Of a stretch of 33,402 nt of DNA, positions 16,164-25,746 are shown piece by piece (within the stretch, counting starts at the first letter, position 1; the number at the start of each line of letters is the position of its first letter). The notes below the pieces were generated by a model. It saw nothing but the letters and a program-made list of their open reading frames with translations. It searched no databases and had not been told where the DNA came from. The stretch is from Solirubrobacterales bacterium. GTDB lineage: Bacteria; Actinomycetota; Thermoleophilia; Solirubrobacterales; Solirubrobacteraceae. The DNA lies in contig JAFAYV010000034.1 of NCBI GenBank assembly GCA_019240115.1, positions 1 to 33,402 on the forward strand. Reading direction: 5' to 3'. The translations under genes were made by a program, and so were the position numbers.

Positions 16164-16825
16164 CGGATCAGCTTCGCCGGGCTGCCCGCGACGACCGCAT
16201 TGGACGGCACGTCGACGGTGACGACCGAGTTGGTGCCGACGACCGCGTTGTCGCCGACCGTCACCCCGCGCAGGATGCACGCCCCGTAGCCCATCCACAC
16301 GTTGTGACCGATGCTGACGTCGCGCTTGTAGATCCCCTGCTCGCGGATCGGGCGCTCGACCTCGACCATCCCGTGGTCGAAGTCGAGCATCATCGCGCGG
16401 TCGGCGATGATGCACTCGCGGCCGACCGACACGTGCTGGTAGACCGAGATCGTGCACTCCTGGCCGAACACGGTCTTGGCGCCGATCGACAGCTCGCCTT
16501 CGTGGACGCGGAGCTTGGTGCCGTGGCCGATCCAGCACCAGCGGCCGAGGCGGACCCGCGCGTGGCGGCCGATCTCGAACGTGACGCCGGGGCCGACGAA
16601 GCAGGGGCCGTCGGTGATCAGCCGCCCGCGCCAGCGCAGCTTCAGCCAGCACCAGCGGATCGCCAGCATCAGATAGCCGCGGCTGAGCATGTGGTTGGCG
16701 ACGACGAAGCGCAGGAAGGCGAGCGGTCCGCCCCGCAGCGGCGCCGGCGCGCCGCGGACCACGGGAGCCGCAGGGGTGCCGTCGACGACCAGCGGCGGTT
16801 CGGTCCCGGGTCCGGCCGCAGACAC
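16127..16825 (-). CDS. Left-handed beta-helix (hexapeptide) acyltransferase, Rv3034c-like
   Basis: A 232-residue acyltransferase of the LbH/maltose O-acetyltransferase fold, which forms trimers and moves acetyl or other acyl groups from CoA to sugars. From about residue 75 the hexapeptide repeats are obvious: CFVGPGVTFEIGRHARVRLG, then WIGHGTKL, FGQECTISV, VSVGRECIIADRAMM, VSIGHNVWMGYGACILRGVT, VGDNAVVGTNSVVTVDVPSN. DFDHG holds a likely catalytic His. It resembles Rv3034c of the mycobacterial methylglucose lipopolysaccharide locus as I recall it. The GTG start at 16825 is supported by TACGAT 8 nt upstream; a longer frame from 16885 is only Gly/Ser-rich. It converges with the GH57 gene and diverges from the MeaB gene. 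Confidence 0.9.
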   Translation of the reverse strand: MSAAGPGTEPPLVVDGTPAAPVVRGAPAPLRGGPLAFLRFVVANHMLSRGYLMLAIRWCWLKLRWRGRLITDGPCFVGPGVTFEIGRHARVRLGRWCWIGHGTKLRVHEGELSIGAKTVFGQECTISVYQHVSVGRECIIADRAMMLDFDHGMVEVERPIREQGIYKRDVSIGHNVWMGYGACILRGVTVGDNAVVGTNSVVTVDVPSNAVVAGSPAKLIRMRHAPRTFRWG

Positions 16826-16833
16826 GACCCGAG

Positions 16834-16839
16834 ATCGTA
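16834..16839 (-). promoter_or_regulatory. -10 box TACGAT for the acyltransferase gene (leaderless)
   Basis: On the minus strand TACGAT ends 8 nt before the GTG at 16825. It favours that start over upstream in-frame codons. Confidence 0.5.
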
Positions 16840-16883
16840 GGGAACCGGACCCACCTCGGGCGGACGAGCCCGGGCCTGGCATC

Positions 16884-17846
16884 ATGGCGCAGATGAGTCG
16901 CGACGACCGGCCGCTCGCCCGACGCCTGCTCGACGGCGATCGCCGGGCGCTCGCGCGCGCGATCTCGCTCGTCGAGAGTGACGATCCCGAGGGCTGGGAG
17001 CTCGTGCGCGAGATCTATCCCCACACCGGCGGGGCCGCCGTCGTCGGCGTCACCGGGGCTCCGGGGGTCGGCAAGTCGACGCTGCTCTCCGAGCTGGTCA
17101 AGCTCGAGCGCTCGCGTGAGCGGTCGATCGCCGTCCTGTCGATCGATCCCTCCTCGCCGTTCACCAAGGGCGCGCTGCTCGGGGATCGCATCCGCCTCAC
17201 CGACCACTTCCTCGACCCCGGCGTGTTCATCCGCTCGATGGCCAGCCGTGGCGCGCTCGGCGGGCTGAGCGAGGCCGCGCTGCAGGCGGCGCTGCTCATG
17301 GACGCCTCGGGCCGCGATCTCGTGCTGCTCGAGACGGTCGGCGTCGGTCAGGCCGAGGTCGACGTCATCGACCACGCCGACACGGTCGTCCTCGTGCTCA
17401 TGCCGGGCTCCGGGGACTCGGTCCAGGCGCTGAAGGCGGGGGTGATGGAGATCCCCGACATCATCGTCGTCAACAAGGCCGAGCATCCCCTGACCGACAC
17501 CATGGTCCGCGAGATCAAGGCCGTGCTGGCGCTCGGGCCCGACCGCGATTGGAAGGTGCCGATCCTGCGCACCGAGGCCGTCCGCGGCGAGGGCGTGGAG
17601 GAGCTTGCCGACAAGCTCTCCGAGCACCGCGCCTTCATCGAGGCCGAGGGCACGCTGTCGGAGCGCCGGCGACGCAACCTGCTCTCGGAGGTGCTCGCGA
17701 TCGCCACCTTCCGCATGCGCCGCGAGCTCGAGGAGGCGCTGAGCGAGAGCGAGGAGGTCCAGGAGCTGCTCGACCGCGTTGTCGCCCGCGAGCTCGACCC
17801 CGCGTCGGCGGCGACGACGATCCTCGAGCGCGAGGTGAAGTCCTGA
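16884..17846 (+). CDS. meaB: MeaB/ArgK-type GTPase chaperone of methylmalonyl-CoA mutase
   Basis: A 320-residue SIMIBI-class G protein that gates loading and protection of adenosylcobalamin in methylmalonyl-CoA mutase. The family marks are GDRRALARAISLVES near the N-terminus, the P-loop GVTGAPGVGKSTLLSEL, VLSIDPSSPFTKGALLGDRIR, FIRSMASRGALGGLSEAA, LLETVGVGQAEVDV (Walker B/switch II) and the NKAE guanine-specificity motif. A C-terminal dimerisation arm follows. An ATG at 16893 is an equally good start and fits a TGGCAT box at 16877-16882. The small B12-binding mutase subunit is encoded 3.6 kb downstream; the large mutase subunit is not in the window. Confidence 0.95.
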   Translation: MAQMSRDDRPLARRLLDGDRRALARAISLVESDDPEGWELVREIYPHTGGAAVVGVTGAPGVGKSTLLSELVKLERSRERSIAVLSIDPSSPFTKGALLGDRIRLTDHFLDPGVFIRSMASRGALGGLSEAALQAALLMDASGRDLVLLETVGVGQAEVDVIDHADTVVLVLMPGSGDSVQALKAGVMEIPDIIVVNKAEHPLTDTMVREIKAVLALGPDRDWKVPILRTEAVRGEGVEELADKLSEHRAFIEAEGTLSERRRRNLLSEVLAIATFRMRRELEEALSESEEVQELLDRVVARELDPASAATTILEREVKS

Positions 17847-17852
17847 TGGCCG

Positions 17853-17898
17853 CGAGCTAGACCGACCCGGCGGGCCGAGCTAGACCGAGCCGGCGAGG
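17853..17898. repeat. 23-bp tandem duplication at the 3' end of the aminopeptidase gene
   Basis: Units at 17853-17875 and 17876-17898 match at 20 of 23 positions. The second contains the stop codon and last codons of the aminopeptidase gene; the first is a non-coding copy that again contains an in-phase-looking TAG. Confidence 0.7.
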
Positions 17899-19325
17899 GC
17901 CAGCTCGACGAGCAGCCGCACCCCGAAGCCGGTCGCGCCCTTGTCGAGATAGGGGGCGCGTCCGCCGAGCCCGCCGTCGCCGACGCCGGCGATGTCGAGG
18001 TGCGCCCAGGGCACGTCGCCGGCGAAGTGGTGCAGCAGCTCCGCCGCGGTCACCGCGAGCGCCTCGCGCGGCATCGGGCGGTTGGTCAGCTGGGCGTCGC
18101 GGCCCTTGGTCATCTCGGCGTAGGCCGGATGCAGCGGCAGGCGCCAGAGCAGCTCGCCGGTCCGCCGGCCGCAGTCGATCGCCCGCTCGGCGAGCGCGTC
18201 GTCGTTGGCCATGAGCCCGGCGTGCACGCGGCCGAGAGCGGAGATGACCCCGCCGGTCAGCGTCGCGATGTCGACGATCGACGCGCACCCGAGCTGCTGC
18301 GCGTAGGTGATGCAGTCGGCGAGGACGAGACGACCCTCGGCGTCGGTGTTGTCGATCTCGATCGTCGTCCCGTCGAGCGCGGTGACGATGTCCCCGGGCC
18401 GCACCGAGCGGTCGCTCGGGAGGTTCTCGGTCGCCCCGACGAGGCCCAGGACGCGGACGGGCGCCGCGAGCGCGGCGAGCGCCGCCAGCGCCTCGATGAC
18501 CGCGGCGCCGCCGGCCATGTCGAACTTCATCCCGACCTGAGAGGCCGCCGCCTTCAGTGACAGGCCGCCGCTGTCGAAGGTCACCGCCTTGCCGACGAGC
18601 GCCAGCCGTGAGCCGTCGTGCAGCGCGCCCGGCCCGGCGTAGTCGAGCACGATCAGCCGGGCCGGCTCGGCCGAGCCGCGCGCGACCGCGGCGAAGGCCC
18701 CCATGCCCGCGGCGTTGATCTGCTCCTCGTCAAGCACGGTCACGGTCAGCGACGAGCTGTCGGCGGCCGCCGCGCGCGCGTAGTCGGCAAGCGCGGTCGG
18801 GGTGAGATCGTTCGGCGGGCGGTTGCCGAGGTCGCGGGCGCGGTTCTGGGCGTGCGCGAGGGTCGCGGCGCGCGCGACGGCCACCCCGACGTCCTGCGGC
18901 CCGCTGATCGTCAGCGCGCTGAGCGGCGGCTCGCCATCGCCCGACCGAAACCGGGTGAAGCGATAGGCGCCGAGCACGGTGCCGCCGACGATCCCGTCGA
19001 CGGTCTCCGCGCCGGCGCCGTCGGGCAGCGCCCAGCACAGCCGCCGCGCGCCCGTCTCCGCGGCGCGCCGGCCGACGAGCGCGGCGGCGATCCGCGCGCG
19101 CTCGCCGTCGAAGTCCGCTCGCGCGCCGAGGCCGACGACGATCGTCCGCCGACCGTCGACATGCGTTCCGGCGAGATGACGGAAGCTGCCCCTGGCCTCG
19201 CCCGAGCGCACGAGCGCGGTCAGCTCGGGCAGGACCCCCTCCGTGTCGTCGCCCTCGAACAGCCCGATCGCCACCGCCTCGGCGTCGGCGGCGAACGGAG
19301 GCTCGGTGGTCGCGGCGACGTCCAC
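17880..19325 (-). CDS. pepA: Leucyl aminopeptidase, peptidase family M17
   Basis: A 481-residue cytosolic di-zinc exopeptidase (usually a hexamer) that removes N-terminal Leu and other residues from peptides. The catalytic C-terminal domain shows ALVGKAVTFDSGGLSLK with the metal ligands Lys and Asp, MKFDMAGGAAVIEA, NTDAEGRLVLAD (residues 326-337, the family signature with metal-binding Asp/Glu and catalytic Arg), and the C-terminal GATGFGVRLL. The loop usually written VGKG has Ala for the second Gly. The N-terminal domain (to about residue 150) is the variable non-catalytic part. I place the start at the GTG at 19325 because TAGTGT lies 8 nt upstream; GTG at 19337 is the alternative. A frame extending to 19769 is antisense to thiolase and is not believed. 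Confidence 0.93.
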   Translation of the reverse strand: MDVAATTEPPFAADAEAVAIGLFEGDDTEGVLPELTALVRSGEARGSFRHLAGTHVDGRRTIVVGLGARADFDGERARIAAALVGRRAAETGARRLCWALPDGAGAETVDGIVGGTVLGAYRFTRFRSGDGEPPLSALTISGPQDVGVAVARAATLAHAQNRARDLGNRPPNDLTPTALADYARAAAADSSSLTVTVLDEEQINAAGMGAFAAVARGSAEPARLIVLDYAGPGALHDGSRLALVGKAVTFDSGGLSLKAAASQVGMKFDMAGGAAVIEALAALAALAAPVRVLGLVGATENLPSDRSVRPGDIVTALDGTTIEIDNTDAEGRLVLADCITYAQQLGCASIVDIATLTGGVISALGRVHAGLMANDDALAERAIDCGRRTGELLWRLPLHPAYAEMTKGRDAQLTNRPMPREALAVTAAELLHHFAGDVPWAHLDIAGVGDGGLGGRAPYLDKGATGFGVRLLVELALAGSV

Positions 19326-19333
19326 GGCGGTGG

Positions 19334-19339
19334 ACACTA
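19334..19339 (-). promoter_or_regulatory. -10 box TAGTGT for pepA (leaderless)
   Basis: On the minus strand TAGTGT ends 8 nt before the GTG at 19325, the spacing seen at other genes in the window. It would lie inside the coding sequence if the GTG at 19337 were used. Confidence 0.45.
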
Positions 19340-19348
19340 ATGACCGCG

Positions 19349-19354
19349 TAGGAT
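19349..19354 (+). promoter_or_regulatory. -10 box TAGGAT for the thiolase gene
   Basis: TAGGAT lies 38 nt before the thiolase ATG, leaving a leader of about 30 nt with a purine-rich ribosome-binding site (GAGGAGAGAGAG). This gene is therefore leadered, unlike its divergent neighbour. Confidence 0.5.
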
Positions 19355-19392
19355 GAGCCTTACCTGCCAATGACTCGAGGAGAGAGAGCCCG

Positions 19393-20577
19393 ATGCCCAA
19401 GACCGTGATCCTGTCCGCCGCGCGCACCCCGATCGGCAAGCTGGGCGGCGGCCTGTCGTCACTGGAGGCGACCGACCTCGGCGGCAAGGTCATCGAGGCG
19501 GCGCTCGAGCGCGCCGAGGTCGCTCCCGACGAGGTCCAGCACGTCGTGATGGGCGAGGTGCTGCAGGCGGGGGTGGGCATGATCCCGTCGCGCCAGGCCC
19601 AGATCAAGGGGGGCATCCCGAAGAACGTGTCCTCGGAGACCATCAACAAGGTGTGCGCCTCGGGCATCCGCGCCGCGGGCGTGATCGACGCCGCGATCCG
19701 CGCCGGTGACCTCGACGTCGCCGTCGGCGGCGGCATGGAGTCGATGTCCCAGGCGCCGTACATGCTCAAGCAGGCGCGGTTCGGCTATCGCATGGGCGAC
19801 GGCAAGGCGCTCGACGCAATGGTCTCCGACGGCTTGACGAACCCCTTCAGCGGCAAGCAGATGGCCCAGGAGGCGACCGAGGTCGCCGACGAGTTCGAGA
19901 TGACGCGCGCCGACATGGACCAGTGGGCGCTGCGCTCCCACGAGCGGGCGGTCAAGTCCACCGACGACGGCAAGCTGCCCGAGGAGATCGTCGCCGTCAC
20001 CGTCGAGGGCCGCAAGGGCGACACGGTGGTCGAGGTCGACGAGGCGCCGCGGCGCGACGCGAGCCTCGACTCGCTGGCCAAGCTTCCGCCGCTGTACGGC
20101 GAGAACGGCTCGCACACCCCCGGCAACTCGCCCGGGGTCAACGACGGCGCCGGCGCGCTCGTGTTCGCCTCCGACAAGTGGGCCAAGGCCAACGGGAAGA
20201 CCCCGCTGGCGACGATCGTCGCCCAGGCGGCGGTCGCCGACGACTTCGCCTACCTGGCGCGCACGCCCGGCAACGCCGCATTCAAGGCGCTCGAGAAGGC
20301 GGGCCTGCAGGTCTCGGACATCGACCTGTGGGAGATCAACGAGGCGTTCGCGTCGGTGACGCTCAACTCGATGCGGATGCTCGAGGTCGACGAGAACCGG
20401 GTCAACGTCAACGGGGGCGCGGTGGCGCTCGGACATCCGATCGGCGCCTCCGGCGCCCGGATCCTCGGCTCGCTCGTGCTCGAGCTGCGCCGACGCGGCG
20501 GAGGCCTGGGCTGCGCGGCGATCTGCTCGGGCGGCGGCCAGGGCGATGCCGTGATCGTCGAGGTACATGGCGGGTAG
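19393..20577 (+). CDS. Acetyl-CoA C-acyltransferase (thiolase)
   Basis: A 394-residue thiolase, catalysing reversible CoA-dependent cleavage of 3-ketoacyl-CoA in beta-oxidation or condensation of two acetyl-CoA. All three active-site signatures are present: NKVCASGIRAAG with the acyl-accepting Cys near residue 88, the block WEINEAFASV / NVNGGAVALGHPIGASGAR with the catalytic His, and CSGGGQGDA with the second catalytic Cys near the end. N-terminal VILSAARTPIGKLGGGLSS is typical. Length fits the biosynthetic/degradative tetrameric class, and sequence alone does not separate acetoacetyl-CoA from long-chain specificity. The start codon has a good ribosome-binding site. Its last 11 bp overlap the HAD gene, so the two are co-translated. 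Confidence 0.95.
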   Translation: MPKTVILSAARTPIGKLGGGLSSLEATDLGGKVIEAALERAEVAPDEVQHVVMGEVLQAGVGMIPSRQAQIKGGIPKNVSSETINKVCASGIRAAGVIDAAIRAGDLDVAVGGGMESMSQAPYMLKQARFGYRMGDGKALDAMVSDGLTNPFSGKQMAQEATEVADEFEMTRADMDQWALRSHERAVKSTDDGKLPEEIVAVTVEGRKGDTVVEVDEAPRRDASLDSLAKLPPLYGENGSHTPGNSPGVNDGAGALVFASDKWAKANGKTPLATIVAQAAVADDFAYLARTPGNAAFKALEKAGLQVSDIDLWEINEAFASVTLNSMRMLEVDENRVNVNGGAVALGHPIGASGARILGSLVLELRRRGGGLGCAAICSGGGQGDAVIVEVHGG

Positions 20578-21415
20578 CCGACCCGCGGGCCCGTCGCCGG
20601 GAGGCGGGCCCGCTCCGGTCGCAGCTGCGTTCTTCGACCTCGACAAGACGCTCATGCAGGGCTCGTCGGCCTTCCAGGTCGCGCGAGCCGCGTACCGGGC
20701 CGGGCTGCTCAGCCGTCGTCAGCTGCTCGACGACGCGCTCGCCGACCTGCGCTTTCGCGTCCGCGGCGCGACCGACGCCGACTCGCTCGCGCTGCGCGAG
20801 CGGGTCGCCGGCTCGCTCGCCGGAGTGCGCCAGGTGGAGCTCGAACGACTCAGCGTCGACGTGCTCGCCGGGATCCTGCCGCGGGTGTACCCGGAGATGC
20901 TGGCGCTCGGCTACGCCCATCAGGACGCCGGGCGCCGCGTCTACATCGTCACCGCCGCCGCTCAGCCGCTCGCCGCCACGCTCGCGCGGGTGATGGGCTT
21001 CGACGGAGCGATCGGATCCGACCTCTCCGAGGTCATCGACGGGGTCTTCACCGGGCGCGCCACCGGCGTGTTCGTCTACCGCAGCGGCAAAGCGGGGGCG
21101 ATCGAGGCGCTCGCGGCGCGCGAGGGCGTCGACCTGGCCGCGTCCTACGCCTACTCGGACTCCGAATCGGACCTGCCGATGCTCTGGCTCGTCGGGCATC
21201 CGGTGGCGGTCAACCCCGACGGCGCGCTCGCGCGCACCGCGCGCGAGCAGGGGTGGGAGATCGTGCGCCTCGACCGGCTCGGGCGCCGCCTGAAGGCGAC
21301 CGCCGCGATGGCCGGCGCGGCGGCCGCCGGTGGGATGGCCTCGGCGGCGCTGGTCCGCCGTCGCCGCCCGGGGCTCTCCGCGGCCTGGCGCTGGCGACTC
21401 GCCGGGATGCCGTAG
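20567..21415 (+). CDS. HAD-superfamily subclass IB phosphatase
   Basis: A 282-residue hydrolase. Motif I is FFDLDKTLMQGSS, with the nucleophilic Asp and DxD(K)T pattern; motif II falls in VYIVTAAAQPLAATLA; motif IV is YSDSESDLPML. This is the SerB/CicA-like IB group, which dephosphorylates phosphoserine, lysophospholipids or related small molecules; the substrate cannot be told. The C-terminus has an Ala/Gly-rich hydrophobic stretch (AAMAGAAAAGGMASAALV) followed by a basic tail (RRRRPG), suggesting peripheral or single-pass membrane attachment. The ATG at 20567 lies inside the thiolase gene with GAGGT 5-6 nt upstream, so translation is coupled. Not obviously linked to beta-oxidation. Confidence 0.88.
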   Translation: MAGSRPAGPSPGGGPAPVAAAFFDLDKTLMQGSSAFQVARAAYRAGLLSRRQLLDDALADLRFRVRGATDADSLALRERVAGSLAGVRQVELERLSVDVLAGILPRVYPEMLALGYAHQDAGRRVYIVTAAAQPLAATLARVMGFDGAIGSDLSEVIDGVFTGRATGVFVYRSGKAGAIEALAAREGVDLAASYAYSDSESDLPMLWLVGHPVAVNPDGALARTAREQGWEIVRLDRLGRRLKATAAMAGAAAAGGMASAALVRRRRPGLSAAWRWRLAGMP

Positions 21416-21436
21416 CCGCGCCGGCCCACGGGGAGT

Positions 21437-21442
21437 TAGACT
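21437..21442 (+). promoter_or_regulatory. -10 box TAGACT of the B12-subunit gene, inside an inverted repeat
   Basis: TAGACT ends 9 nt before the GTG at 21452, predicting a leaderless transcript. It is embedded in the inverted repeat GGGAGT-tag-ACTCCC (21431-21445), which could be an operator. Confidence 0.5.
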
Positions 21443-21451
21443 CCCGGCGCC

Positions 21452-21859
21452 GTGTCCCCGTCGTCCGAGAAGAAGATCCGCGTCGTCGTCGCCAAGCCCG
21501 GCCTCGACGGGCATGACCGCGGAGCGAAGATCATCGCCCGCGCGCTGCGCGACGCCGGCATGGAGGTGATCTACACGGGGTTGCACCAGACGCCCGAGCA
21601 GATCGTCGAGACCGTCATCCAGGAGGACGCCGACGCCGTCGGGCTCTCGATCCTCTCGGGCGCGCACATGACGCTGGTGCCGCGGATCATGGAGCTCATG
21701 TCCGAGCAGGGGCTCGACGATGTCGTCGTCACCGTCGGCGGCACGATCCCCGATGACGACGTGAGCGAGCTGAAGAACCTCGGGGTGGCCGAGGTGTTCA
21801 CCCCCGGGGCCCCGGCCCAGAAGGCGATCGACTTCATCCGCGGCGCGGTCCGCGCGTGA
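21452..21859 (+). CDS. Methylmalonyl-CoA mutase cobalamin-binding subunit (small, C-terminal-domain protein)
   Basis: A 135-residue protein that is just the B12-binding Rossmann domain of methylmalonyl-CoA (or isobutyryl-CoA) mutase. [17 protein letters not shown] contains the DxHxxG signature, with His21 as the lower cobalt ligand. [14 protein letters not shown] and [11 protein letters not shown] are the other two B12-contact loops. In this split architecture it must pair with a separate catalytic large subunit, which is not in the window. The enzyme isomerises methylmalonyl-CoA and succinyl-CoA during propionate and odd-chain degradation. GTG start supported by a -10 box 9 nt upstream. The mutase GTPase gene meaB is 3.6 kb upstream, with thiolase between. 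Confidence 0.93.
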
Positions 21860-21877
21860 GCGTCGGGCGCTGGGAGC

Positions 21878-22072
21878 GGCACCGTCGGGCGCCGGAGTGG
21901 CAGCTGTCGTGCGCCGGGGGTGGCACTGCCGTGCGCCGGGGTGGCGCCGTCGCGCACCGGGGGTGGCACTGCCGTGCGCCGGGGGTGGCGCCGTCGTGCG
22001 CCGGGGTGGCGCCGTCGTGCACCGGGGGTGGCGCCGTCGTGCCCGAGGATGGCACCGTCGTGCGCTCGGCGG
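21878..22072. repeat. Array of nine degenerate 21/22-bp tandem repeats
   Basis: Units of the form GGCGCCGTCGTGCGCCGGGGT, nine in a row, alternating 21 and 22 bp, with scattered substitutions. The mixed unit length breaks every reading frame periodically, so it is unlikely to encode a repeat protein. It fills the first two thirds of the 330-nt gap between the B12-subunit gene and etfB. No spacers of the CRISPR kind. Confidence 0.85.
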
Positions 22073-22086
22073 GCCGCGTCCCTGCC

Positions 22087-22104
22087 TGACTGACTGGTCA
22101 GTCA
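22087..22104. promoter_or_regulatory. 18-bp TetR-type operator upstream of the ETF operon
   Basis: TGACTGAC-tg-GTCAGTCA is a perfect palindrome with 8-bp arms. It ends 17 nt before the -10 box at 22122, so it covers the -35 region. Its form is like that of TetR-family repressors of fatty-acid degradation genes (FadR, PaaR and related). No TetR gene is in the window. Confidence 0.75.
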
Positions 22105-22121
22105 ATGTCCATCGCCTGCAA

Positions 22122-22127
22122 TAGACT
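22122..22127 (+). promoter_or_regulatory. -10 box TAGACT of the ETF operon
   Basis: TAGACT lies 62 nt before the etfB start codon, leaving a leader with a strong ribosome-binding site (ATAGGAGG at 22176-22183). Together with the palindrome immediately upstream it forms a repressible promoter. Confidence 0.6.
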
Positions 22128-22189
22128 CCCGCGCACCGTCGCTGCGGAGGGGGCGTGTCCCCGCGCGGGGAACCGATAGGAGGCCACCG

Positions 22190-22981
22190 TTGAAGATCTG
22201 CGTCCTGGTCAAAGAGGTCCCGGATGCCGCCGTGCAGAAACGCATCGATCCCTCGACGGGGCGCATGGATCGCTCCGGAGAGCGAAACCTCAACCCGTAC
22301 GACACCCACGCGATCGAGGCCGCGATGCAGATCCGCGAGGGCGGGGAGGTCGAGGTGTCGGAGATCGTCGCGGTGACGATGGGCCCCGATACGGCCACCC
22401 GGGCGCTGCAGAAGGCCGTGTCGCTGGGCGCCGATCGCTCGCTGCACCTGTGTGACGACGCGCTCGCGGGCTCCGACGTCGCCGCCACCGGCTATGCCCT
22501 GGCCCGGGCGGTCGCCTCCGAGTCCCCGGACCTCGTCCTGCTCGGTCAGCAGTCCGACGACGGGGAGTGCTACACGATCGGCGCGGTCGTCGCCGACCAT
22601 CTGCAGATGCCGTCGCTGACCCAGGTGATCAAGATGGACGTCGCCTCGGACACGTTGACCTGCGAGCGCCAGGCCGAGTACGGCTATGACACGGTCGAGG
22701 TGACGCTGCCCGCCGTCATCAGCGTCGGCGACGCGATCAACGAGCCGCGGTATCCCTCGCTGAAGGCGATCATGGGCGCGAAGAAGAAGCCGCTGCAGAC
22801 GGTGGCCGCGGGCGACGTCGGGATCGACACCGCGCTCGTGGGCGCCGACGGCTCGCGCGTGCAGTGCGGCGACTTCCACGATCCGCCGGCCAAGGAGGCG
22901 GGGCAGATCATCGAGGACGAGGACACCGCGGAGACGGTCGAGAGGATCGTCGCCTGGCTCGACGAGAGGAAGCTGATCTGA
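22190..22981 (+). CDS. etfB: Electron transfer flavoprotein, beta subunit
   Basis: A 263-residue ETF beta subunit, which binds AMP and helps carry electrons from acyl-CoA dehydrogenases to ETF:quinone oxidoreductase. The N-terminus KICVLVKEVPDAAVQKRID, the conserved LNPYDTHAIEAAMQIRE, the nucleotide loop VTMGPDTATRALQKAVSLGADR and the interaction loop GQQSDDGECYTIGAVVADHLQMP all match. The C-terminal arm (YPSLKAIMGAKKKPL) is the recognition-loop region. The start is a TTG seven nt after a strong ribosome-binding site. First gene of a three-gene operon, with etfA 33 nt downstream and the quinone oxidoreductase 2 nt after that. Confidence 0.96.
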   Translation: MKICVLVKEVPDAAVQKRIDPSTGRMDRSGERNLNPYDTHAIEAAMQIREGGEVEVSEIVAVTMGPDTATRALQKAVSLGADRSLHLCDDALAGSDVAATGYALARAVASESPDLVLLGQQSDDGECYTIGAVVADHLQMPSLTQVIKMDVASDTLTCERQAEYGYDTVEVTLPAVISVGDAINEPRYPSLKAIMGAKKKPLQTVAAGDVGIDTALVGADGSRVQCGDFHDPPAKEAGQIIEDEDTAETVERIVAWLDERKLI

Positions 22982-23014
22982 TGGTCCGCGGCCGCACACA
23001 CGAAGGAGCCCACA

Positions 23015-23998
23015 ATGGCTGACGTGCTCACCTACGTGCTCCACAACGAGGGCGCGTTCAACAAGAACTCGCTCGGCGCCGTCTCCGAGGCCGCCGCCCG
23101 CGCCGCCGAGGTCGGCGGCGAGGCACATGCGGTCGTCGTCGGCGGCGACGACCTGACCGACGAGCTGTGCCAGTCGCTCGGCGCCTACGGCGCGACCAAG
23201 GTGTTCCGTGCCCACGCCCCCGAGGGGCTTGCCCAGCCAGTCGTCGACGTCATGGCCAAGGTCATCGACGAGCACGGCCACGGGTACGCGCTGTTCGGCG
23301 GCGGACTGCTCGGCTTCGAGATCGGCGCCGGGCTGGCCGCCCGCACGCAGGCCGGGGTCACGATGGAGGTCACCGCGGTGCGCGCGCAGGACGGCAAGCT
23401 CGTCGCCGAGCGCCCGGTCCTGCAGGATTCCAAGATCTCGGTCTCGCACTACCAGGGCGACCTCGGGATCATCATCGGCCGGATCAACGCCTTCGAGGCC
23501 CACGAGCGCGACGGCGCGGCGGCCGAGGTCGTCGACGTCGAGGTGACGCTCTCGCCATGGTCGACGCAGGCCAGGATGGTGACGCGCGGCGAGCAGCGCG
23601 GCGCCGACGTCGACATCGAGGGCGCCGACATCCTCGTCGCCGGCGGGCGCGGCCTGGGCAAGGCCGAGGGCTTCGAGCTCGCCGAGTCGCTCGCCGGCGC
23701 GTTCGGCGCGAGCGCCGCCGTGGCCGCGACGCGCGCGGTCGTCGACGCCGGCTGGTACCCCTACGCCGCCCAGATCGGCCAGACCGGCAAGACCGTCGCG
23801 CCGAAGCTGTACTTCGCCGCCGGCATCTCCGGCGCGATCCAGCACAAGGTCGGGATGCAGGCCTCGGAGAACATCGTCGCGATCAACAAGGACGCCAACG
23901 CGCCGATCTTCGAGTTCTCCGATCTCGGCATCGTCGGCGACCTGAATCGGATCATGCCCAAGCTCACCGAGGCGATCAAAGCCAGGAAGGGCGGCTGA
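23015..23998 (+). CDS. etfA: Electron transfer flavoprotein, alpha subunit
   Basis: A 327-residue ETF alpha subunit, which carries the FAD of the heterodimer. The N-terminal domain has the usual fold ([22 protein letters not shown]). The FAD-binding C-terminal domain shows [80 protein letters not shown] and [16 protein letters not shown], in the canonical order. ATG start with AAGGAG 9 nt upstream. The gene is in the etfB-etfA-ETF-QO operon, and the stop codon is 2 nt from the next start. Confidence 0.97.
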
Positions 23999-24000
23999 GG

Positions 24001-25746
24001 GTGGCGGCGCCCAACGGTCACGGGCCGCCCGCGCCGAGCGACTTCCCGCCGCCGGTCGATTCCGTCGGCGAGTTCATCAAGCGTGAGCTCGACGACGAGG
24101 AGGAGCGGATCGAGGTCGGGGTGGCGATCGTCGGCGGCGGCACCGCAGGCCTGGCCTGCGCCAACCGGCTGCTCCAGCTGCTCGCCGAGGACGAGGCGTT
24201 GCTCGAGCGCCTCGGCGAGGTCCCGGTCGCGGTCATCGAGAAGGCCAAGACGTGCGGCGGGCACACCCTGTCGGGCGCGGTTATGCGCCCCGGACCGCTC
24301 CAGAAGCTGTTCGGAGACCTCTCGCGCGAGGACTGGCGCCGCGAGCGGTTCGCCTTCGGCGAGGTGACCAAGGAGTCGATCTACGCGCTGCCCAACGCCA
24401 AGGCCAAGCTGCCGGTGCCGCTGGCGGCAGTGCCGAACTTCCGCAACCACGGCAACGAGGTCGTCTCGGTCTCGGCGCTCGCGCGCTACCAGGCCGCGCA
24501 GGCCGAGGAGGGCGGCGCCTACATCCTGACCGAGACCGCCGCCTCGCAGCTGATCGTCGTCGACGGACGCGTCGTCGGGGTGCGCTCCGGGGACAAGGGC
24601 CGCGGCAAGGACGGCGAGCCGCAGGGCAACTTCGAGCCCGGCACCGACATCCAGGCGCAGGTCACCGTCCTCGCCGAGGGCAGCTGGGGCCATCTCACGG
24701 GGACGGCGATCAAGGAGTTCGAGCTCGCCGACGGGCGCGAGCCGCAGGTCTGGGAGCTCGGCGTCAAGGAGGTGTGGAAGGTCGAAAAGCCCCTGGACCG
24801 CGTCATCCACACGCTCGGGCCGTGGCCGCTGAAGGCGGCCTCCAAGTACGGCCATGTCGGCGGCACGTGGCTGTACCCGATGAAGGACTTCAAGACCGGC
24901 GACGACCTCGTCTCGATCGGGCTCGTCGTCGACCTCGACTACGCCGACGCGACCACCTCGGCTCACGACCTGCTCCAGCAGTTCAAGCTCCACCCGCTCG
25001 TCAAGGGGATCCTCGGCGGCGGCGAGCGCGTCGCCTGGGGCGCCAAGGCGCTGCCCGGCGGCGGGTATTGGTCGATGCCCAAGCTCTCGATGCCCGGCGC
25101 CCTGCTCGTCGGCGACTCCGGCGGCATGGTCGACGCCGCGGCGCTCAAGGGCGTCCATCACTGCATCAGCTCGGGCATCCTCGCCGGCGAGGCGATCTAC
25201 CGCTCGCTGCGCCACGGCGAGACGCTTGAGAGCTATGAGCGGGCGGTCGAGGAGTCGAGCATCGGCCGCGAGCTCTACCGGGTGCGCAACACCCGCCAGC
25301 CGCTGCAGAAGGGGTTCCTGCGGGGCGCGCCCCTGAGCGGTGCGGCGATCATGAGCCGCGGCCGGGTACCGCGCGGGCGGCTTGCCTGGCACGTCGACGA
25401 CCAGGTGCCGCTGTTCGTCGGCGACACCGCCGACGGTTATCCCAAGCCTGACGGCACCTACACCTTCGACAAGCTCTCGAGCGTGTACATCAGCGGCAAC
25501 GCCACCCGCGACGACGCGCCGAACCACATCCGCGTGCACCGCAACGTGCCGCGCGAGATCGCCGAGGCATGGCGCTGGATGTGCCCCGCCGGCGTCTACG
25601 AGATCCCCGAGGACGCCCCGCAGAGGGGGTTCGTCGACGTCACGGTCAACTACACCAACTGCGTCCAGTGCGGCGCGATCACCGCCAAGGGCGGTCGGCT
25701 GACCCCGCCCGAGGGCGGCGACGGGCCGCTGTACCAGCTGACCTAG
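24001..25746 (+). CDS. Electron transfer flavoprotein:quinone oxidoreductase, with one cluster cysteine missing
   Basis: A 581-residue flavoprotein that passes electrons from reduced ETF to membrane quinone (presumably menaquinone here). The FAD-binding motif is [20 protein letters not shown] (residues 40-59), and the second flavin region is [20 protein letters not shown]. The C-terminal ferredoxin-like domain normally ligates a 4Fe-4S cluster with four Cys. Here I see C528 (CPAGVYE), C554 and C557 (NCVQCGAIT), but the position of the fourth, in C-x2-C-x2-C, is Ile560. The domain otherwise ends normally ([12 protein letters not shown]). The amphipathic membrane-docking segment lies in the middle ([19 protein letters not shown]). 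GTG start, 2 nt after etfA; no obvious ribosome-binding site, so translation is likely coupled. Confidence 0.93.

What the first reader, a model, noticed from the sequence alone, without database searches (positions are those of the whole stretch)
25582..25746. ETF:quinone oxidoreductase missing the fourth cluster cysteine
Canonical ETF-QO binds a 4Fe-4S cluster by one Cys followed by C-x2-C-x2-C. Here the Cys are 528, 554 and 557, and position 560 is Ile (codon ATC at 25678). The rest of the domain is intact. Either the protein holds a 3Fe-4S or differently ligated cluster, or another residue supplies the ligand, or electrons pass directly from ETF to FAD.
Basis: partly seen in the sequence, partly recalled or inferred. 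Interest (0 to 1): 0.6.

Follow-up and report, generated by a model that had tools for sequence, protein, structure and literature searches.

The report
ETF-quinone reductase with three-cysteine cluster site
The enzyme that feeds electrons from fat and amino-acid breakdown into respiration normally holds an iron-sulfur cluster with four cysteines, but in nearly a whole class of soil bacteria one of these is always isoleucine, so the cluster there is probably of a different type.

Summary
The ETF:quinone oxidoreductase at 24001-25743 has Cys528, Cys554, Cys557 and Ile560 where the third Cys of CxxCxxC belongs. It is not a sequencing error. All 111 full-length relatives compared (pairwise identity down to 46%) have Ile there, written ATC, ATT or ATA, and 233 of 300 genomes of the class (nearest named relatives: Thermoleophilia) carry the motif NC[V/I][Q/H]CGAI-x-A[K/R]GG. 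The other three Cys are invariant, and no other Cys in the protein is conserved. 'The rest of the domain is intact' is wrong. The variant also has Lys-Thr to Gly-Ala before the lost Cys, a fixed 4-residue deletion after it, and a rewritten segment at 499-505. One family of the class keeps the four-Cys form. On a tree built without the cluster domain, the variants form one clade (SH-aLRT 99) and need a single change of state. The gene follows etfB-etfA, and the genome has no other Fer4_ETF_QO domain. The most likely reading is a working ETF:menaquinone oxidoreductase with a three-Cys cluster, most likely a [3Fe-4S], as in the succinate dehydrogenase cluster whose E. coli motif also has Ile at the missing Cys. 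A [4Fe-4S] with a non-Cys fourth ligand is the main rival. Cluster type needs EPR or Mossbauer spectroscopy.

The parts
24001..25746 (+). ETF:quinone oxidoreductase, Cys3 variant (581 aa, GTG start, TAG stop)
   Evidence: Pfam ETFQO_UQ-bd 75.8 bits and Fer4_ETF_QO 48.2 bits, both over cut-off; pig ETF-QO 2gmh E 6.7e-85
24754..25053 (+). quinone-binding domain (PF21162), residues 252-351
25453..25737 (+). cluster domain Fer4_ETF_QO (PF05187), residues 485-579; the only such domain in the genome
25495..25515 (+). residues 499-505 GNATRDD, rewritten relative to canonical GTNHEED-type segment; N500 and D504 invariant in variants
25582..25584 (+). Cys528 of CPAG, first cluster cysteine
   Evidence: invariant 111/111 variants, 11/11 canonical
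25660..25662 (+). Cys554, first of CxxC
   Evidence: invariant 111/111
25669..25671 (+). Cys557, second of CxxC
   Evidence: invariant 111/111
25675..25677 (+). Ala559, in place of canonical Thr (T558 of pig) next to the cluster
   Evidence: 111/111 Ala against 11/11 Thr
25678..25680 (+). Ile560 (ATC) in place of the fourth cluster cysteine
   Evidence: 111/111 Ile, codons ATC 103, ATT 7, ATA 1; 11/11 Cys in canonical
25693..25698 (+). Gly565/Arg566: point where four residues of the canonical loop are absent
   Evidence: 0 inserted residues in 111/111 variants, 4 in 11/11 canonical
22190..22981 (+). etfB, electron transfer flavoprotein beta subunit
   Evidence: PF01012 137.9 bits; adjacent in relatives
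23015..23998 (+). etfA, electron transfer flavoprotein alpha subunit
   Evidence: PF00766 108.2 bits, PF01012; directly upstream of the ETF-QO in relatives

Best explanation
The gene encodes a working ETF:menaquinone oxidoreductase of the ETF-QO family, the third gene of an etfB-etfA-etfQO operon. It takes electrons from ETF through a cluster held by only three cysteines (528, 554, 557), passes them to FAD and reduces menaquinone. The cluster is most likely a cuboidal [3Fe-4S]: Ile560 fills the corner where the fourth iron and its cysteine would sit, and the neighbouring loop was shortened and rewritten to fit. The variant arose once and has been kept across nearly the whole class. Shown: the sequence change, its fixation, the invariance of the three Cys and the loop, single origin on the tree, the operon, and a menaquinone-type genome. 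Inferred: that a cluster is bound, that it is [3Fe-4S], and the electron path.
For: Three Cys invariant in 111/111, no other Cys conserved. In the loop 553-576, 54% of positions are invariant against 13% in residues 36-480, so the site is under strong selection rather than decaying. The replacement is always Ile, never a polar residue that could ligate. The variant DNA motif is in 233 of 300 class genomes, and the reversed-pattern control counts read 0 in the listed rows. One clade, SH-aLRT 99, one change of state on a tree built without the cluster domain. etfBA lies directly upstream in all 41 loci whose flank reaches it. No canonical paralogue in the genome. Precedent: E. coli SdhB reads CHSIMNC, Ile at the missing Cys; in quinol-fumarate reductase the [3Fe-4S] is held by three Cys, two of them from a CxxCxxC-type loop (PMC1459171). 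Menaquinone: menB over cut-off in the genome, MK-7(H4) in Conexibacter and Solirubrobacter (PMC3035278; PMC10722151).
Against: No direct evidence of any cluster. In SdhB the missing Cys is the second of CxxCxxC; here it is the third, as in aconitase-type sites, which hold a labile [4Fe-4S] (aconitase topology from own knowledge). Going from [4Fe-4S] to [3Fe-4S] usually raises the potential, which does not obviously suit menaquinone, a low-potential acceptor; and the family of the same class that keeps four Cys presumably also uses menaquinone (not tested), so the quinone does not by itself explain the change. The structure model was too poor in this domain to rule out a ligand from elsewhere, such as invariant Asp504.
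Confidence: 0.5

Rival explanations
1. The site holds a [4Fe-4S] cluster with three Cys and a non-cysteine fourth ligand (Asp504, Thr/Asn/Ser561, a backbone group, water or hydroxide).
For: Asp504 and Asn500 are invariant in variants and differ from the canonical residues (Glu or His, Thr or Ala), with linked changes at 502-503. Three-Cys [4Fe-4S] sites with Asp or water exist (P. furiosus ferredoxin, RirA, aconitase; PMC11138216).
Against: Residue 560 is always Ile, not a ligand. Canonical proteins already have an acidic residue at 504, so it is not a new one. Residue 561 changes among Thr, Asn and Ser. An open iron would be labile in aerobic soil bacteria.
Confidence: 0.3
2. The cluster is lost and ETF reduces the FAD directly.
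For: One ligand and the neighbouring Thr are gone, and the loop is shortened.
Against: Three Cys and their surroundings are among the most conserved positions of the protein over the whole clade; ligands of a lost cluster should drift, as Cys53, Cys85 and Cys388 do. From own knowledge (not checked here), a human ETF-QO cluster-ligand mutant lost ETF-linked activity.
Confidence: 0.08
3. The three Cys hold another centre (Cys3 [2Fe-2S] with one other ligand, or a structural metal such as zinc).
For: Some three-Cys sites hold [2Fe-2S] (dihydroxyacid dehydratases, PMC11138216).
Against: Cys spacing and surroundings (CPA-VY, NCxxC, PEGGxGP) match the cubane site of ETF-QO.
Confidence: 0.1
4. Sequencing or assembly error, or a decaying copy.
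For: None found.
Against: 111/111 relatives have Ile with three different Ile codons; 233 of 300 genomes carry the motif.
Confidence: 0.005

Closest known systems
ETF:ubiquinone oxidoreductase (ETF-QO, EC 1.5.5.1; pig structure 2GMH)
   Same: FAD domain, quinone-binding domain, C-terminal cluster domain, three of four cluster Cys, linkage to etfBA
   Different: fourth cluster Cys is Ile, adjacent Thr is Ala, 4-residue deletion in the cluster loop, rewritten 499-505 segment; 32-42% identical to the 11 canonical ETF-QOs compared
[3Fe-4S] cluster of succinate dehydrogenase / fumarate reductase (SdhB/FrdB)
   Same: quinone-reducing respiratory enzyme; three Cys, with Ile at the missing Cys in E. 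coli SdhB (CHSIMNC)
   Different: different fold; the missing Cys is the second, not the third, of CxxCxxC
FixC/FixX
   Same: homologous flavoprotein plus ferredoxin-like part; found in two families of the class that lack the variant
   Different: separate subunits; the FixX-like sequence read (L098) keeps the Cys at this place
EtfD (mycobacterial ETF:menaquinone oxidoreductase)
   Same: same task, ETF to menaquinone; carries an unusual (linear) [3Fe-4S] cluster (PMC13083937)
   Different: not homologous (CCG domains, transmembrane helices, heme). The window's genome has a separate EtfD-like protein

Membership tests
ETF-QO (EC 1.5.5.1) | FAD domain and ETF-QO quinone-binding domain | tested here: met
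   PF21162 75.8 bits over cut-off; 2gmh E 6.7e-85 over residues 37-578
ETF-QO (EC 1.5.5.1) | C-terminal Fer4_ETF_QO domain | tested here: met
   PF05187 48.2 bits over cut-off of 24
ETF-QO (EC 1.5.5.1) | four cysteine ligands C...CxxCxxC for a [4Fe-4S] | tested here: not met
   third Cys of CxxCxxC is Ile in 111/111 variants. Hence filed as a Cys3 variant subfamily, not as canonical [4Fe-4S] ETF-QO
ETF-QO (EC 1.5.5.1) | genetic link to ETF | tested here: met
   etfB-etfA directly upstream
ETF-QO (EC 1.5.5.1) | ETF-dependent quinone reduction | not testable with these tools
   needs purified protein
[3Fe-4S] protein | three Cys ligands and a non-ligand at the fourth place | tested here: met
   Cys528, 554, 557 invariant, Ile560 invariant
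[3Fe-4S] protein | three irons, S=1/2 EPR when oxidised | not testable with these tools
   needs spectroscopy
FixC | matches curated FixC models at cut-off, ferredoxin as separate gene | tested here: not met
   52.9 bits against cut-off 610; cluster domain is fused

The most novel reading that the evidence does not exclude
A class-wide subfamily of ETF-QO that swapped its [4Fe-4S] for a [3Fe-4S] (or a site-differentiated [4Fe-4S]) once in evolution, by one ligand loss plus a remodelled loop, and has kept it in menaquinone-respiring bacteria. It would be a natural counterpart of the [3Fe-4S] of complex II in the ETF branch of respiration.
Probability: 0.6. Interest if true: 0.6.

Novelty: new variant of a known kind. 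Interest (0 to 1): 0.5.

Why it matters
ETF-QO is the single entry of fatty-acid and amino-acid electrons to the quinone pool in many organisms, and its cluster is usually taken as a fixed four-Cys [4Fe-4S]. A stable natural three-Cys form shows that cluster type is not fixed in this enzyme. It gives a ready comparison (variant against four-Cys form within one bacterial class) for asking what the cluster does in ETF oxidation and quinone reduction, and it warns against annotating a [4Fe-4S] here by homology alone.

Tried and rejected
Sequencing error: rejected. Substitute Cys elsewhere: rejected, none conserved. Hidden canonical paralogue in the genome: none found. AlphaFold model from 12 sequences: mean pLDDT 62.9, and about 24-64 over residues 440-581, so the geometry of the site was not read from it, and no fold search or second model was run. 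Only 12 loci came from the genome-contig scan, and loci from the genome search fall outside the stated rule for structure jobs. Search outside the phylum: the genome search takes only genome handles as centre. The plasmid records gave no match of 60% identity or more to the cluster region, but chromosomes of other phyla were not scanned, so the limits of the variant are not known. Within the phylum, 296 genomes gave the fused domain only in this class, plus six weak matches elsewhere, in short frames or at lower scores, that look like FixX. Papers: nothing found on a three-Cys ETF-QO, but most ETF-QO biochemistry papers are not held. Covariation between the lost Cys and the 499-505 segment cannot be tested statistically because there is one change on the tree.

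Full report
What is there. The window holds etfB (22190-22981), etfA (23015-23998) and, two bases on, an ETF:quinone oxidoreductase from GTG 24001 to TAG 25746, 581 aa. It matches the quinone-binding and cluster domains of ETF-QO over their cut-offs, and its nearest solved structure is pig ETF-QO, 2gmh. It is the only Fer4_ETF_QO domain in the genome.

Is it real. The same protein was taken from relatives in the genus, family and order and in the class, with canonical ETF-QOs from one family of the same class and from five proteobacterial plasmids. In 111 distinct full-length variants (pairwise identity down to 46%, median 57%) residue 560 is Ile without exception, written ATC 103, ATT 7 and ATA 1 times; in 11 canonical ones it is Cys. 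A degenerate DNA pattern for NC[V/I][Q/H]CGAI-x-A[K/R]GG is in 233 of 300 genomes of the class. The genomes without it include all those of three family groups: f8, part of which has the four-Cys ETF-QO, and f6 and f9, where only FixC/FixX-like matches were seen. Titles of the nearest named relatives place this in Solirubrobacterales / Thermoleophilia.

More than one residue. The variant differs from the canonical form in a set of fixed ways: Lys-Thr-Cys became Gly-Ala-Ile, four residues after Gly565 are missing in 111/111 (present in 11/11 canonical), and segment 499-505 changed from a GTNHEED type to GNATRDD with Asn500 and Asp504 invariant. So 'the rest of the domain is intact' does not hold. 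The Thr that became Ala is, from own knowledge of the mammalian and Rhodobacter enzymes, a residue that hydrogen-bonds to the cluster and tunes its potential; Tyr533, the other such residue, is kept.

Why a cluster is probably still there. The three remaining Cys are invariant, while the protein's other Cys (53, 85, 388) are not conserved. In residues 553-576, 13 of 24 positions are invariant, against 13% of residues 36-480. A dead site would drift. A tree built from residues up to 480, without the cluster domain, puts all variants in one clade (SH-aLRT 99) and needs a single change between Cys and Ile. That is one event, so statistics of covariation cannot be done.

Which cluster. Ile, never a polar residue, sits at the lost ligand. 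E. coli SdhB has Ile at the lost Cys of its CxxCxxC-type motif (CHSIMNC), and in the homologous quinol-fumarate reductase a [3Fe-4S] is held by three Cys, two from the loop motif and one from a helix (PMC1459171). This favours [3Fe-4S]. The missing position is, however, the third and not the second of the motif, and three-Cys sites with Asp or water as fourth ligand also exist (PMC11138216). Asp504 is the candidate I could not exclude, because the structure model was poor in this domain. I put [3Fe-4S] at about one half and [4Fe-4S] with another ligand at about 0.3.

How it works. By position in the operon, conserved in all 41 loci of L002-L043 with enough flank (some of these are the same genome fetched twice), and by homology, it takes electrons from the neighbouring ETF and passes them to quinone. 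The genome has menB over its cut-off, and cultured relatives contain MK-7(H4) (PMC3035278; PMC10722151), so the acceptor is most likely menaquinone. The genome also codes for an EtfD-like protein (hydrophobic N-terminal part, a two-cluster ferredoxin region and two CCG domains), the type that does this job in mycobacteria (PMC13083937), so the ETF-QO may not be the only route.

Verdict. A real, fixed, class-wide variant of a known enzyme, ordinary in its task and unusual in its cluster site. Nothing was found in the held papers describing it, but the main ETF-QO papers are not held. Cluster type is untested.

Noticed in passing
L177 (G000:C68, around 87375-87632): EtfD-like protein in the same genome: hydrophobic N-terminal segments, a two-cluster ferredoxin region and two CCG domains, a possible second ETF:menaquinone route.
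   Followed up: partly
L064-L069, L147-L152: One family of the class (f8) has a four-Cys ETF-QO, in the five loci with enough flank behind an etfBA pair only about 36-44% identical to the window's; possibly a separate acquisition.
   Followed up: partly
L153-L166 and families f6, f9: Families lacking the variant have FixC-like proteins with separate FixX-like ferredoxins instead of the fused enzyme.
   Followed up: partly
genomes G171, G256, G269, G544: Some genomes carry two copies of the variant motif; the purpose of the second copy, or whether it is contamination, was not studied.
   Followed up: no
window 16689-20577: MeaB and thiolase genes upstream, consistent with a fatty-acid and propionate breakdown neighbourhood.
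   Followed up: no
window 20408-23845 (-) and 23761-25539 (-): Very long antisense open frames opposite etfA and the ETF-QO, as expected from high G+C; probably not genes.
   Followed up: no
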